64,000 nucleotides of DNA from Monarcha castaneiventris obscurior (Eukaryota > Chordata > Aves > Passeriformes > Monarchidae). The translations under genes were made by a program, and so were the position numbers. The stretch is from positions 10,043,001 to 10,107,000 of the forward strand of contig JAMPIT010000230.1 of NCBI GenBank assembly GCA_026261815.1, read 5' to 3'. Within the stretch, counting starts at the first letter, position 1. Each line of letters opens with the position of its first letter. This document shows positions 28,328 to 62,654 of this stretch, piece by piece. Under the pieces are notes generated by a model that saw only the letters and a program-made list of their open reading frames with translations, was not told the DNA's origin and searched no databases.

Positions 28328-28408
28328 GAAAAAAAAAAACAAACAAACAAACAAACAAACAAACCAAAACCAAAACAAAAGAAACAAAACAAACAAACAA
28401 ACAAAAAC
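28328..28408 (+). repeat. (AAAC)n microsatellite
   Basis: Starts with an A run, then about six CAAA units, interrupted by CCAAAA and AAAAG variants, then further CAAA units. It differs from the A/C-only tract near 60 kb: it is short, periodic and contains a G. Confidence 0.85.
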
Positions 28409-31400
28409 CCCTAAATTAAAATAACTGAAAAAACTTCAGAAATTAGATTTTAAAGCAGCATTTTGTGAATCTATTAAAAAAAGAAAAGAAAGCAAACAGA
28501 AAACAAACCTATCCATCCCCAATAAGGGATGCAGCAATTCAAGACACATTTTCATAAGATTCTGCTTTGCCTCTCCTCACCCTCCAGTCATTTCTACCCA
28601 ACTCCCAAATGATTTTGTTAGCGGTAAAACAAGGGAAAATGAATTTTCCATAGAAATGGAATTTCTTAGGGAAGTGATTACTCACTGACCCAAAACATGT
28701 CACAGAAGGACCTTTCTGTCCATGACATTCAGTTTGAACATGAACACACTTCTGGAAGACTTGAGGCTTCTGAAGCTCTGCTGAGACTTACAGGTTACAG
28801 TGTTCAAGAAGCCCAATTCAAACTCAAGATAGAGCTTTTGCATTCCTTGGCCATCTTATTGGTCATCTTCCTCAACTTATAGCACTCTTTAGAGGAGAAA
28901 TTAAAAGGGCAACACTTCATTCAACAATTGCTACAATCAGTTGCAGCTTAGAGAGTTAACTTCAAGTGAAGTTGCTGTTATGATGCTGTCGGAAGTGCCT
29001 TCTTCACAAGAATCCTATTTGTAACTGTCTTCCAAATAAGCCTGGAATAAGATTTCCAAACACTGAGGTTTCCCCTGAAGCACAGACTAACTTTTAGTCA
29101 TCTCTGGTAAAACTAATTCACAGTCTAGTGCAAAATCCATCTGGTCTAATTAGGTGACAGAGTCTGACTCTCCCTGTTTCTCACTGTTTTCTATTCAGTC
29201 CTGCTCAAGATGGAACAGAAAACTTTAATTCTACATGTTGAAGACCAGCAAACTGAAGAGCTGTTAAAGAAATCAAGCAGGCCTCTTAAAGGAACTGGCT
29301 TTCCTTCCATCAGACAAAACCCTGCAATGGAGACCCATTAAATGAATACTTGAGGAAGCCGGTCTGTAGTGCATCCAGCACAATGGCTAAAAGAACACTG
29401 TTAAATTTATCTATCCAGCCCAAATATATTTCCTATAATGTGACAGAATGCTTAAACAAGCATCTCTCACTCAAGGGAGCTGCTAAAGTATTTTGGTGCA
29501 ATGTGGATACGTATTTAACAGATTCGTACTTCAGATGGAATAACCCTTTAGAGGTTTGCCGTGCTTATGGCTTCAAAATCAGGACATAAGGCTACTGACT
29601 ACGAATAGGCACTTTATTGATGCCTTTTCCAGTGCAGAAGAAAAACTCTGTAGTACACTGGTATTGACTTTCACAGCTCCTGACTATTCTTTGTACATGT
29701 TCCTTCTTATTTTGAGGGGACTTCTGACTTCACTGTATTTCTCAAGCAAAGCCAGTAAAGCTGGGGACCAGCAAAGCACCAAAGGGACTTTGGGTGCTAA
29801 GCAGGTTATTTGAAAAAAGAAACTAAAGTTCTATTTAAAAAAAAAAAAAAATCCTCTTTTTTTCCTCTCTGAATGAAATTGTTTAGGATAAAAACCTGAT
29901 TCTAGTGTCAATGGGACTGCTGGAACATTATTGATTTTTAACAAATTTTATAAAATTTTTAAACTACAAGTTTCCTAAGCATCAGTCAGTAATCAATATC
30001 TTTGTTAAAATTCCATCCTCTACAAATTATGTGCATATCTTCTCTGAAGAAAGTTCTTGGAAATAGAGATTCCCTGAACAGGAGCTATCTCAGATTTTCA
30101 GGAGGACAAAATTCAGATCCTTTCCTGGAAACCCCCCACTGCAGTCATTCATAAAGCAAACGACTCAAATATAACATCAAGTCAGCTGATCTCTACCGTC
30201 AAATGAATTAAAAAGAAAAGCAGCATCTTAATTAGGAAGGCTCCAAATCATATATAAATTCATAAATCAATGGCAATCACTCAGAAGCTGATAGGGAACC
30301 AGACAATCAGTGAATTAAAGTAACATGCATCATTCAGCTGCCACTCTTAAAGAATTTCTGTCACATATTTTGCCACAACGTTGATGTATAAAGTATAGTT
30401 CATGATGTAGTTTGGAAATCCCAAGGGTATGGATAATTGTAGCATCCTTAGAAATTGTGGATGCCTTTCATATTCACATTAATTATTCTTTTTCCTAACC
30501 TTAGCACAACTAAAAGATTCAGCACTCTTCAAGATGTCTATCTCTCCCACAAAAATCTTCATAATCTGAAAAAATGAAAAACTTGATTTAGAACAGAACT
30601 AAAATTTTCTCATGAAGGAATTTCCTGGAAAAAAGAAATAAGAAATTAATGTGTTTCTGTTTCCTGGTTGATAAATGTTTTCCACAGCAAATGAAAATGG
30701 CAAAGCTTGTTCATATGGGAAGCCAGAGAATTTTGACAGGTTTTTTTTCTCTGAAAAAGTATTGATTTTGAAAATAGCAGAATTCTCTTTCAGACAGTCA
30801 CTTACACAGAAAATCTCTGCTCAGCCCATTAAGCACAAGAAGTTATCCAGATTCTCCAAAAAGTTGACATATATCACATGAAAAGGCGCCAGGAAGTATT
30901 TTGTCTACATCACTGTAACACAAAATGTGTTACTATCGCTTTGTAGTGGCTATGAGTACCTTCTTGTCTTAGAGGGGAAATACAATGGAAAAGAGAATGC
31001 CCAGTAAAACAACTTCAGGAACTACTGATACCATGAGGCAACATTTCCTAGATGTAATGCTGTAAAATATAGCAGAAGGGTGAAACTTCCAATTTCAGCA
31101 ATGTCAGGACTTTTTCCCCTCACAAAATGCTGACATTTCAGCAAAAACACATATGATTTTGTAGTGTGTTTGCATTTCACTTGAAAAATAGAATGGGTAA
31201 GATGAGTGTTTCCAGACAAGTTCTCTTAAGGAGTGAAAATGGTTGGCAGAAGTTCAGTTCTAAGACCATTGCTTGTCGCTTCGGAGCACACATGTACCAC
31301 AACAGAAGCAGACATTCTCCAGATCTGGTCTGAGAGCAGTAAAAGCTCATCACAGTGAAAACAATCTGACTTTGCTCCTAAAGCGAGAAAGCAGAGATTC

Positions 31401-57500: not shown

Positions 57501-59540
57501 AGAAGGTACCTATGAAGGAGGGGAGATCCAGCCTAATTCAGAGGTAGATTTCTCTCTTGAGCCAGGATATCTAGACTAAAAGGGTTGTCCAGCCTCTCTA
57601 TACAAGGAGAGATGTGCACCTTCAGACCATTTTAGATAACTTAATTCAGATAACTTTAGAAAGGGATTTTGTTCTGAAGGCAACTATGTCTCTCTGTAGA
57701 AGCCTACATTATTAGTTCATGTCAAACAATTGTTTGTAAAAGTTGAGATTAATACAGATGTAGGCACTAAAACTTCGACAGATGACAATTCCTGCTAGAG
57801 CCTTACAAGGGACATCTCCTCCTTCCACTGCTACATCGAGAAATTCCACAGGTGCCCACAGTCTTCAACAAGAGCTTCACTAAACATATGCACAAGTGAG
57901 ATACCTGCATTATACATATTATTATTATCAAGTATTATTGCAATTTCAAATTCAACATGTCCTATTTTTCATTAAAATCTTACTAATTGCATCATTTTTT
58001 ACAATCATTTATTTTCCAGATTAGCCTTACACCAGTTTTGCCAAAGAGCAGTGACTTCTCTTTCATTACCAGTCAATACCATCATGTTTGACTGATTTCT
58101 GAAGGATTTTTTAAGTCCCTCAGTGCTGCAAGATTTACAAGTAAAAGAAATTCAGTCTCCTCATTCTGACTCCTTTGGCACTCAAGGGTGCCAGTTCTGC
58201 TGACTTCAGAAATATATTTAACTTCCACTGTTTAAGTTTATGGTCCTCCCTATCTGCTAGCTCAATAGAAAGTATTTCCTTAATACTTTATCATAGGAAT
58301 ACATCATCCTGGTTTTCTTCAGGAACAGATCAAAAAAATATTTGTTGAACACTTCCTTTACTATGTTGTGCTTACTACCCTTATCTCATGTCGTACTGAT
58401 ACAGTTGTTGGACTGTTGTTTGTTCCTGACACACTTGAGACATTCTTTCCTGAAATTCCCTGATTGGTTTTCTGCTTTTTCAGCAATGCTTATTAACATT
58501 TATTAATATCAGCTTAAACTTGTCCTAAAAAGCAGAATACTATGATCTGTGTGATCCCAGTATCTTAATGCATTTCATCTTTGCTATTGGCCATGTGCAA
58601 CATTTCAGAGCCTTGCCTTTCTATTCATAGTACTGAATCAGAAGTTTGTAAAGCTCCTACTGTTTGTTTCTCTTAAAGAGGATTTTGCTGTTAAAACAAG
58701 CAGGTACCACAGTCAGTCAGCAGTTCTGCATCTTAGTTTGCTCCTTTTAGTTTACCCCAGCTGCTCACATGTCAATCAAAACCACTTGTTATGAATAGAT
58801 TTGATGCCTGCAGAGATTAACAAATTGAGACCCCATGACGCAATCCTGAGACACAAGTGGAAGGATACAACATATGGAAGCCAGGTTCTGGTTCAGCTCT
58901 GCTTACTCTGTCCAGATGTTTTCAGGGCCCCAGATATGTCAAACTCCCCTCAGTGTATCACATTGTCAAATAGAAAAATCAAAACACTATGAGAAAGGCT
59001 ATTCCCCTATGCCTGTAACCTTGCTGAAACCAGATTAAGCCAAAAATACACAGGTTTACAGCCAATTTTCTAATTAAAATACAAAAGATTCTTACATTCT
59101 TTAGATTCTGTGAGACTACAGAAGAGTCTGATTTCCATATTCCAAAGGCAAAAGAAATGTGCATGTATTCTTATAAGACTAACTTATAAACTACTTCTAA
59201 CCGCCACCTAAAAAGTTGTGTGTCCTGCTAACACCCTTACTCCCATATTAAAAAATGTGACTTTTCGGAAACTTTCATAGGGAATCAAAGTGAGAGCAAG
59301 GAATACCAGCTTGACCTCTGTTGCCCAGTTGTATGTCTCAGACCTTCCAAGTGACCAACAGAGCAGTTACAGGATTTTTATATCAGGTTGCCTATTCCAC
59401 CTTGTATATGCCTGCTCTGCATATATGTCTGCTGACAGGGTCTTTAATTATGTGATTTCATAACTTATTTTCCATTCAGTGGGTGAATTAGCAGCATAAA
59501 TGAGGCAATATTTTCTTTTTCCTCTCAGCATTCACGGTGC
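45527..59540. other. Unique DNA, no gene seen
   Basis: About 14 kb without a supportable gene. The AT-rich stretch to about 49.5 kb has almost no ORFs. At 53650-54090 a GC-richer patch carries four overlapping frames of 60-119 codons on both strands, one of which would encode a hydrophobic stretch but lacks an in-frame ATG. A 20-bp AT palindrome lies at 51957-51976. No repeat family was recognised. Confidence 0.55.
51957..51976. repeat. (AAT)n/(ATT)n palindrome
   Basis: AAT units turn into ATT units at a central point, giving a perfect 20-bp palindrome inside an imperfect trinucleotide repeat. Confidence 0.75.
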
Positions 59541-59545
59541 AGTTT
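59541..59545. repeat. Target-site duplication, left copy
   Basis: 'agttt' directly before the left LTR terminus matches 'agttt' at 62650-62654 directly after the right LTR terminus. This is the staggered-cut repair expected of retroviral integrase. Five bases match; six-base duplications are the commoner ERVK size. Confidence 0.75.
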
Positions 59546-60057
59546 TGTCTCGGTTTGAAAGACAGGTGTCAGACAAGAAAGGCAGGAGCCTCCCCTGAAA
59601 TGGAAAATGCAACCCCCTTCCCTCCGAATTATTATAAATCTGAAAATAAGGGGCTTTCAGGCAAAGATATAAGGGGTAGGAAAACAACAAAAAAAAACAA
59701 CACAAACAAACCAAACCACACACAAACACACCCAACCCACCCCCCCCCCCCCACCCCCCACACCACCCCCCCCACCCCACACCACACCAACCCCCAAAAA
59801 AAAACCCACAAAACCCCCCACCCAAACACACAACCAACCAACCAAAACACCAAAACCCCACCCACCAACCAACCCCCAACACAAAAACACAAACCCCCCC
59901 CAAAACAAAACACCAAAAACAAACCCCAACCAACCCACACCAAACCCACAAACCACACCCCACCCCCCCCCAACCCCCAACAAAACCACCCACCCCCCCC
60001 CACCAAACCACACCCCACAACAAAAAACAAAAAAAAACACAAAACCAAACCCCAACA
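59546..60057 (-). mobile_element. 3' LTR of the provirus, mostly corrupted in this sequence
   Basis: Bases 59546-59680 match 61785-61918 except for one extra A. From 59681 only A and C remain, but the string still follows the other LTR with its G and T removed, to the terminal 'ccccaaca' pattern ending about 60057. The true LTR should be about 865 bp; here it occupies 512. Confidence 0.8.
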
Positions 60058-60440
60058 ACCACCCCAACCCAACAACAACACAAACAACAAACAAACACAC
60101 ACAACCAAAAAACAAACACAAAAACAAACAACCCACACCCACAAACCCCCCACACCCCACACCACCCCCCAACAAACCACCCACCCCACCCCACCACAAA
60201 AAACCACACCACCAACCCCCCACACCACCACCCCCCACAACCCCAACCCCCCACCCCCCACCCCAACCCACCAACCACACAAACCCCACCCAACCAACCA
60301 ACACCACAAACCCACCCCCCCAAACAAAAAACCCACCCCCACAACACCCACACCCCAACACCCACCCCCCAAAAACAAACCCACCCACCACCCCCCAACC
60401 ACCACACCCCACCCACAAACCCCCCACACCAAACCCCCCA
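59681..60440. other. A/C-only tract: ERV sequence lacking all G and T
   Basis: All 760 bases are A or C, with no period and therefore no tandem repeat. Removing G and T from the intact LTR at 61919-62649 gives the same order of runs. For example, the LTR stretch around 62160-62215 reduces to 'cccacaaaaccccccaccca', identical to the tract at about 59806-59825. Differences are small, mostly one- or two-base shortenings of homopolymers plus a few local mismatches. The LTR part ends at about 60057. The remaining 383 bases presumably represent roughly 740 bases of internal provirus, judged from the LTR ratio. An error confined to two of four bases points to base calling or consensus, not biology. 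All six frames are stop-free for a trivial reason: no T on one strand, no A on the other. Confidence 0.9.
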
Positions 60441-61718
60441 GAGAGAAAGGGGCCCTGGCTCCCTCACAAATATTTGATCCACACCTGGGTCCTGGGTCAA
60501 AGATCCCAAATACTGCCTCACCACTATCCAGCGCACACCGTACCCATAGGTCCCAAACCCGAAGTAACCAGGTTGTAAAAGCCTCACGTCCCCTCCGCAC
60601 ATGTCTTTTCGCATATTACGAGACTTCATAGACAGGGACTCGTGATGATTTCAGGCTCTGGCTCCCCGCGGTTGTGAGGGCCCTGGTTCCCCATCATCAT
60701 TCACTGGGCGCACTGATTTGGCCTTGTATTCCTCCTCTGCACAGGGGCAACTGCTGCTGGCTGGGATTGCCCTTGTGATTCAGCTGGAGCCTGGACAGTT
60801 GTAACATCCACAGGTTCCACTGCTGCACTATCAGACTCTCCCTCACTGGGGCAGGGAGAGGGTTTCCCAACAGCTGAGAAAATGCACTCTTTCAGCATCT
60901 GGCCCATCTCCGTATCTCCTTTACCAGTGCCCCCACTAAATCTGGGTAATTTATTTCTGAGGTGGGCTGTTGGGCAGGATTTCTAGTCCCAACCACCCCC
61001 ACTCTGGGGCAGGATCTCTAGTCTCTGGGGTCCTGTCAGGCTCTGGGGCAGGATCTCTAGTCTCTGGGGCCCTGTCAGGTTCTGACAGGATCTCTAGTCT
61101 CTGGGGCCCTGTCAGGTTCTGCAACAGGATCTCTAGTCTCTGCGGCAGGGTCTCTTGTCTCTGGGACAGGATCCCTAGTCTTTGGGGCCCTGTCAGGTTC
61201 TGTGGCAGCATCCCTAGCCCCCGGGGTAGGTATCAGGGTGGTTATCAAGTAATCTCCCTTTATCTCTGAGTATAAGCAGAATAGGCACATCAGCAACACC
61301 ACCCACTGTACAATATCATTAGCATTTAGGGAAGATCTGAATCCTTCGAAAACTGGTGGAGTGGACCCAAAGAGATGGGTTAAGGGTTGGGAGAAAGTTT
61401 CCCCGGTGTCATCTCCTCACAGTAGGTCCCATTATTAAAGTAACCCCAAAAGCATACCGTTAGTGTGCGATAGCCCTGTATCCATGTGCCCACATTCCAG
61501 AGGAAGTTAAAAACCCATGAATTCCTCAGCTTATCAACCCATAGGGCAAACTGGATAACAGCAACAGTGGCCTTAGTCAGAGGACCATGTTTAGAAAAGG
61601 AGCTGCAAAAGGGAGAAATACAGCCACGACCACATGCCACCCGAACCAGGGCAAACTGGACCACATAGTGCTGCCTAGCAAGGTTTTTATATTCAGCACA
61701 CAGAACTGAGTTATCCAA
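60441..61718 (-). pseudogene. Broken gag-like region of the provirus
   Basis: This is the legible internal region downstream of the primer-binding site, where gag belongs. Reading is split among frames: an ATG-initiated 112-codon frame (61718-61380), frames of 75 and 86 codons over the Pro/Arg/Asp-rich repeats (61302-61075 and 61211-60951), a 68-codon Pro/Gln/Ala-rich frame (60907-60701), and a Trp-containing stretch (about 60600-60441) that runs into the A/C tract. Low-complexity Pro-rich linkers between matrix and capsid are usual in Gag. No zinc-knuckle (CCHC) is visible, and it would lie further on. The gag assignment rests mainly on position and composition. Whether the frame breaks are real or further sequence errors cannot be told here. 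Confidence 0.45.
61003..61230 (-). repeat. Tandem repeats of about 39 bp in the gag-like region
   Basis: Five or so imperfect units built from 'caggatctctagtctctggg' and 'gccctgtcagg'. The first two units are 39 bp and nearly identical; later ones carry deletions and one compound unit. On the minus strand they encode Pro/Glu/Thr/Arg/Asp-rich repeats of the type PETRDPAPEPDR. Confidence 0.85.
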
Positions 61719-61761
61719 GAACTGTTATTCCTTTTTTAGCCTTTTCTCTCAATGCCCTCAG

Positions 61762-61779
61762 GCCCCACGTTGGGCGCCA
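61762..61779 (-). promoter_or_regulatory. Primer-binding site for tRNA-Lys
   Basis: The plus strand reads 'gccccacgttgggcgcca', so the minus strand carries the 18-base complement of the 3' end of tRNA-Lys(1,2), the primer of many betaretroviruses and ERVK-type elements. It begins five bases inside the LTR end. It fixes the element's orientation as minus and its class as lysine-primed. Confidence 0.9.
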
Positions 61780-61784
61780 AGATC

Positions 61785-62649
61785 TGTCTCGGTTTGAAAG
61801 ACAGGTGTCAGACAAGAAAGGCAGGAGCCTCCCCTGAAATGGAAATGCAACCCCCTTCCCTCCGAATTATTATAAATCTGAAAATAAGGGGCTTTCAGGC
61901 AAAGATATAAGGGGTAGGAATAACAGTTCTTTACTAATAAATATATATGTATAACAACACAAACAAACAGCAATAGCTGTGGCAGTCACAGCAAACAGCA
62001 GCCCGAACCCAGCGCCGGCCTCGGGCGCTTTCCCCTGGCTGCAGTTCCTCCTCCCGCTGAGCAGGGCGGGTGCGATGGTTCCCCCGCGGCTGCAGGGGGC
62101 GCTCCGCAGCGAGCTCGGGAGCACCGGGAATGGAGCGCGGGGTCCCGGAAGGGATGTATGAGAAAACCTCACAAAACTCTTGGGCGTCGGCCGGATCCTC
62201 AGGAACAGCAGGCTGGAACGGCAGGGGCGAGCGCAGATCTCGGGTGGCAGTGAGAGGTATCAAACTGCGGAGCTGGGCAGGGAAACCCGGCAGGTCTCTC
62301 AGTCGCAGAGCGCAGGAGCTCCGTTTCCAACGGGACAAGGAGGAGAGCAGGCTTAGGAACCCCGGGGGTTTGCCCGCAGAAAGCAAAACAGCAAAGAAGC
62401 AGAAACCCGCAGTGGTGACCGAGACGTCCACACCGACGGGAGCCAGCTTCCCGACTAAACCTTGAGCACCCAGGCAGCCCCCCGCCCCGGGTGTCTCAAC
62501 CCCCAGGTGACAAAAGGGTGGCCAGTCCCACCCCGCCTCTGTGGCCAGGTCTTTTGTTTCTTTTAAGTGTCCAGCGATTTGTCCCCTAGCAACTAGTATG
62601 GGTAAAATTCTTTAAGAGAAAAAACAGGCTAAAATCCTAAACCCCAACA
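61785..62649 (-). mobile_element. 5' LTR of the provirus (865 bp, intact)
   Basis: On the minus strand it starts 'tgttggggtttaggatttt' and ends 'aaccgagaca' (TG...CA). It is CpG- and GC-rich from about 62000 to 62480, in strong contrast with the flanking DNA, and has an AT-rich TATA-like segment ('tatatatttatta' on the minus strand, about 61935-61950) roughly 160 bases before the U5 end. No canonical AATAAA is evident after it. A 165-codon open frame (62431-61934 minus) lies within U3/R and is probably incidental. Confidence 0.85.
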
Positions 62650-62654
62650 AGTTT
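62650..62654. repeat. Target-site duplication, right copy
   Basis: 'agttt' immediately outside the right LTR terminus, identical to the left copy. Host sequence continues as 'taagccccatttactggg'. Confidence 0.75.

What the first reader, a model, noticed from the sequence alone, without database searches (positions are those of the whole stretch)
59681..60440. A 760-base A/C-only tract is the provirus's own sequence with every G and T dropped
The tract contains no G or T, has no period, and begins and ends abruptly. Deleting G and T from the intact LTR (61919-62649) reproduces it run by run: the A9 after a C5 run, then 'cccacaaaaccccccaccca', and the closing 'aaaccccaaca' at about 60057. The few differences are mostly shortened homopolymers, as in a single noisy read. 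What follows (60058-60440) must be internal provirus treated the same way. This is not a satellite, a Z-DNA element or a gene. It is a two-base dropout, perhaps from loss of one detection channel in long-read data placed where coverage was thin. About 700 real bases are estimated to be missing.
Basis: partly seen in the sequence, partly recalled or inferred. Interest (0 to 1): 0.88.

Follow-up and report, generated by a model that had tools for sequence, protein, structure and literature searches.

The report
Sequence stretch missing every G and T
A 760-letter stretch made only of A and C inside an old virus-derived insertion is very probably ordinary DNA from which the Gs and Ts were lost, a sequencing or assembly error rather than biology.

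Summary
59681-60440 is 760 nt of A and C only; the next longest A/C-only run in the window is 52 nt. Its first 377 nt are the intact LTR piece 61919-62649 with its 331 G/T removed: 93.3% identical columns, 0 mismatches, 25 A/C lost, 2 gained, against 68.4% on average and 71.9% at most in 300 shuffles. Of 24 ways to reduce, swap or reverse the LTR, only keeping A and C, forward, stands out. Identity falls to chance right after the LTR end at 60057. The rest, 60058-60440, has no counterpart in the window; that it is provirus body treated the same way is inferred.

So this is a two-base dropout over about 1.5 kb of real sequence, with about 710-760 bases missing. The likeliest cause is loss of the G/T signal in one long read at a poorly covered spot; the A,C / G,T split fits a two-laser real-time sequencer (recalled, not sourced). 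The other errors are mostly losses, unlike insertion-rich early PacBio reads, so the instrument step stays inferred. It is not a biological feature. No reads and no other copy could be examined.

The parts
59541..59545 (.). left target-site duplication AGTTT
   Evidence: AGTTT directly before the left LTR start and directly after the right LTR end
59546..59680 (-). normal part of the left LTR (the 3' LTR of a minus-strand provirus), one indel from the right LTR
   Evidence: alignment with 61785-61918: one extra A, no substitution
59681..60057 (.). A/C-only tract, first part: the rest of the left LTR with G and T missing
   Evidence: 93.3% identity, 0 mismatches, to 61919-62649 with G/T removed
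60058..60440 (.). A/C-only tract, second part: presumed end of the provirus body with G and T missing (inferred)
   Evidence: same two-letter make-up; no counterpart in the rest of the window; lies between the LTR end and the provirus body
60441..61784 (-). remaining provirus body of normal composition; no Pfam family above its cut-off in the 10 open frames of 60 aa or more
61002..61217 (.). 39-bp tandem repeat in the provirus body
   Evidence: Tandem Repeats Finder, 5.5 copies
61762..61779 (-). primer-binding site of tRNA-Lys type (name recalled), which puts the provirus on the minus strand
   Evidence: sequence beside the right LTR
61785..62649 (-). intact right LTR (the 5' LTR), 865 bp, TG...CA, 56% GC
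62650..62654 (.). right target-site duplication AGTTT

Best explanation
The tract is a data error. The real DNA is the rest of a provirus LTR (about 731 bases) plus about 740-790 bases of provirus body, in which G and T are missing from the assembled sequence while A and C remain in order. Shown: complete loss of G and T with order kept over the LTR half, and a sharp start. Inferred: the same for the second half. Inferred, about 60% likely: a real-time single-molecule (PacBio-type) read lost for a time the signal of the two dyes that share a laser or detector, so G and T pulses were not recorded, and this read alone filled a GC-rich, repeat-flanked spot of thin coverage.
For: 0 of 760 letters are G or T; 0 of 331 G/T in the matched LTR part survive. 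A and C order is kept: 93.3% identity, 0 mismatches, a 66-nt exact match. Only the {A,C} forward reduction stands out of 24 tried. Identity is 96.7% in the last 60 nt before the LTR end and 71.6%, chance level, in the next 60 against the reduced host flank. G and T vanish together: the last G is at 59680 and the first missing base is a T three bases on. Loss events exceed gain events, 16 to 2 (binomial p 0.0013), which balanced LTR divergence does not predict. Both LTRs share one target-site duplication, so they are one insertion. The LTR is 56% GC in a 40% GC window. In a bird-of-paradise genome, LTR retrotransposons were reported as the major cause of PacBio gaps and gap-filled sequence as GC-rich (PMC7757076, passages).
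Against: No reads or second assembly were available; the own-genome search did not complete in 9 tries. The other errors are losses (25 letters) rather than insertions (2), while early PacBio raw reads are described as skewed toward insertions (PMC3504050, passages). 9 of the 16 loss events touch a C run that holds a CpG, so some may be true C-to-T differences between the LTRs; but such runs hold 126 of 212 C and 12 of 16 lost C, so there is little enrichment. The rate of extra differences cannot be firmly told from LTR divergence, because the normal 135 bases hold only one indel. Which dyes share a laser is recalled, and no listed row of my paper searches reports such a dropout. The second half of the tract is untested.
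Confidence: 0.93

Rival explanations
1. A file-handling or assembly-software fault removed the letters G and T from a correct sequence.
For: G and T loss is complete and there is no mismatch. True LTR differences, including CpG changes, could explain part of the lost A/C.
Against: Pure letter removal would leave only true LTR differences, with gains and losses balanced; 16 loss events against 2 gain events are seen (p 0.0013). I know of no program that does this, and did not search for one.
Confidence: 0.1
2. Real A/C-rich low-complexity DNA (satellite or microsatellite expansion) lies in the provirus.
For: It is low in complexity and Tandem Repeats Finder lists loose periods.
Against: Run-by-run match to the reduced LTR with a 66-nt exact string; no strong period; identity drops to chance at the LTR terminus.
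Confidence: 0.01
3. The first half is a dropout of the LTR, but the second half (60058-60440) comes from elsewhere, for example a chimeric join.
For: The second half matches nothing in the rest of the window when reduced: best of 492 overlapping 1,000-base pieces, both strands, 176.9, in the provirus body on the minus strand, where 200 shuffles of the reduced body reach 184.6.
Against: It follows the LTR without a break, the body must start there, and unique body sequence is expected to have no copy in the window.
Confidence: 0.05

Closest known systems
Deletion errors of single-molecule real-time (PacBio continuous long read) data left in assemblies
   Same: Lost bases with order kept, at a GC-rich, repeat-flanked spot of the kind reported for gap filling (PMC7757076, passages)
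   Different: Here the loss is total for two of the four bases over about 1.5 kb; early reads are described as about 15% error, skewed toward insertions (PMC3504050, passages)
Non-autonomous endogenous retrovirus with a tRNA-Lys type primer-binding site (host element; class name recalled)
   Same: Two LTRs with TG...CA ends, a 5-bp target-site duplication and a primer-binding site
   Different: No Pfam family above cut-off in the 10 body frames; the inner end next to the left LTR is unreadable because of the dropout

Membership tests
Two-base dropout artefact | Two letters wholly absent | tested here: met
   0 G/T in 760 nt
Two-base dropout artefact | Remaining letters keep the order of a known source sequence | tested here: met
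   First 377 nt: 93.3%, 0 mismatches; shuffles at most 71.9% of 300
Two-base dropout artefact | The same holds for 60058-60440 | tested here: inconclusive
   No source copy in the window; genome search not answered (9 tries)
PacBio-type channel loss | Missing bases are the pair that shares a laser or detector | not testable with these tools
   The G,T / A,C pairing is recalled; five paper searches aimed at it gave no source among the listed rows
PacBio-type channel loss | Error pattern of early raw continuous long reads (skewed toward insertions) | tested here: not met
   25 losses, 2 gains; so it is not filed as such a read, only said to behave like a channel loss. The skew is from PMC3504050 (passages)
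LTR provirus | Two LTRs, TG...CA ends, target-site duplication, primer-binding site | tested here: met
   the left LTR is matched in its normal part and, reduced, in the tract
LTR provirus | Polypurine tract inside the 3' LTR | not testable with these tools
   It would lie in the dropped stretch
LTR provirus | gag, pro, pol or env domains | tested here: not met
   10 of 10 open frames of 60 aa or more inside 60441-61784: no match above its cut-off; the two weak ones have E 0.17 and 0.029, far below cut-off and not retroviral. The dropped stretch cannot be searched; non-autonomous elements lack such domains

The most novel reading that the evidence does not exclude
Colour-reduced tracts of this kind are a recurring, unreported error class in public long-read assemblies, filed as A/C-rich or G/T-rich low complexity, always with the A,C / G,T split, and recognisable wherever a paralogue exists.
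Probability: 0.3. Interest if true: 0.5.

Novelty: not a real feature. Interest (0 to 1): 0.35.

Why it matters
It is a clear error in an assembled sequence: false low-complexity DNA, false open frames of up to 375 codons and about 710-760 missing bases. If such tracts recur, a simple scan for long aperiodic two-letter runs would find them, and the letter pair would point to the instrument fault that made them.

Tried and rejected
Rejected: satellite or simple repeat; other letter sets and reversed or swapped readings; a copy of the second half elsewhere in the window; an overlap of the second half with 60441-61784 (166.7 on + and 176.9 on -, against maxima of 193.4 and 184.6 in 200 shuffles each) or with the LTR (165.5 and 154.5 against 189.9 and 182.2). 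The two halves of the tract score 159.7 against each other, shuffle mean 146.4, SD 6.9 of 200, which I take as composition, not kinship. No Rfam family at gathering score and no tRNA gene (bacterial ARAGORN settings) in the window. Two LTR strings gave no exact match in viral contigs.

Papers: ten searches. Aimed at such a dropout: 15 of 114 papers listed; 15 of 469; 12 of 765; 1 of 1. At dyes and lasers: 10 of 10; 10 of 1,225; 15 of 131; 0; 2 of 2. At gap filling: (12 of 36). No listed title or abstract start reports a two-base dropout; unlisted papers were not seen. Two papers were read in passages only.

A caution on method: with two-letter strings, local alignment runs on at chance level, so a local alignment offered the host flank extended to 60433. 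I rely on global and windowed identity instead. Single events are placed by one of very many equally good alignments.

Full report
What is there. The window's 59681-60440 holds 760 letters, 420 C and 340 A, with no G and no T. No other two-letter run in the window is longer than 52 nt. The run begins inside the left LTR of a small provirus and ends inside its body.

Setting. The right LTR is 61785-62649 (865 bp, TG...CA, 56% GC in a window of 40% GC). The left LTR starts at 59546; its first 135 bases have normal composition and differ from the right LTR by one extra A. Both outer ends carry AGTTT, a 5-bp target-site duplication, so the two LTRs belong to one insertion. A primer-binding site of tRNA-Lys type (name recalled) lies at 61762-61779 beside the right LTR, so the provirus reads on the minus strand: the right LTR is its 5' LTR, and the tract covers most of the 3' LTR and, it seems, the end of the body. 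None of the 10 open frames of 60 aa or more inside 60441-61784 has a Pfam match above its cut-off; two weak matches, E 0.17 and 0.029, are far below cut-off. It looks like a short non-autonomous element.

Test of the claim. Removing G and T from 61919-62649 leaves 400 letters. Against 59681-60057 (377 nt) they give 375 identical of 402 columns, 0 mismatches, 25 letters lost and 2 gained. Shuffled strings give 68.4% (SD 1.4, max 71.9% of 300), run-order shuffles 67.2% (max 71.9% of 300), and the longest exact match is 66 nt against at most 21 in 60 shuffles. Of 24 ways to reduce, swap or reverse the LTR, only keeping A and C, forward, stands out: 341.7 against 191.7 for the next, which is within the range of the 1,000 shuffled or Markov strings (max 199.1). 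The 162 other reduced window pieces reach at most 175.6. Identity in the last 60 nt before the LTR end is 96.7% and falls to 71.6%, chance level, when the next 60 nt are set against the reduced host flank. So the first half is the left LTR without G and T.

Second half. 60058-60440 has no counterpart among 492 overlapping reduced pieces (1,000 bases, both strands, those touching the tract left out), nor in the provirus body or LTR taken whole. Unique body sequence would give this result, and so would unrelated sequence. That it is provirus body treated the same way is therefore inferred from its place, not shown. With the local A+C fraction (51-55%) it stands for about 740-790 real bases; with the LTR part (731 bases for 377 letters) about 710-760 bases are missing in all.

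Nature of the loss. None of 331 G/T in the matched part is left, while 25 of 400 A/C are lost. The 16 loss events against 2 gain events (p 0.0013) argue against plain LTR divergence or plain letter removal, both of which should balance, and for a noisy record of the A/C signal. Two cautions: 9 of the 16 events touch a C run holding a CpG, so some may be true C-to-T differences, though such runs hold 126 of 212 C and 12 of the 16 lost C, little more than their share; and the placing of events is one of very many equally good alignments. In the reduced string 19 of 25 lost letters lie in runs of two or more and 6 of 25 are single-letter runs. G and T loss starts together within three bases; at the end G is back at 60441 and T at 60456, and without a second copy it cannot be said whether a T is missing in between.

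Mechanism. Deleting bases while keeping order needs a reader that records each incorporation separately in time, as single-molecule real-time sequencing does; cycle-based chemistry would miscall rather than skip (general knowledge). In PacBio instruments, as I recall, T and G share one laser and A and C the other; the split {A,C}/{G,T} is the same seen from either strand. No listed row of my searches stated this or reported such a dropout (listings cover only part of the hits, see Tried and rejected). Against it stands the error pattern: early PacBio reads are described as about 15% error skewed toward insertions (PMC3504050, passages), and here insertions are rare. A later chemistry or a consensus step could differ; I cannot tell. 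How such a read could enter an assembly is also inferred: PBJelly takes a read that spans a gap as the simplest support and then builds a consensus from the supporting reads (PMC3504050, passages; whether one read alone suffices I did not see), and in a bird-of-paradise assembly LTR elements were reported as the major cause of PacBio gaps, with filled sequence GC-rich (PMC7757076, passages). The host and the sequencing platform of this window were not identified here.

Verdict. Observation confirmed; interpretation supported; not a biological feature. The interest lies in an unusually clean case of a two-base dropout in an assembled genome, and in the simple scan it suggests.

Noticed in passing
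61002-61217: A 39-bp tandem repeat (about 5.5 copies) in the provirus body.
   Followed up: no
60441-61784: The provirus body of normal composition is only 1.3 kb and shows no Pfam match above cut-off in its 10 open frames of 60 aa or more, so the element looks non-autonomous.
   Followed up: partly
28329-28409: An (AAAC)n-type simple repeat after a poly-A holds the second longest A/C-only run of the window (52 nt) and is clearly periodic, unlike the tract.
   Followed up: partly
59504-60650: The dropout creates false open frames of up to 375 codons (+) and 372 codons (-), because no stop codon can be made of A and C only, nor of G and T only on the other strand.
   Followed up: partly
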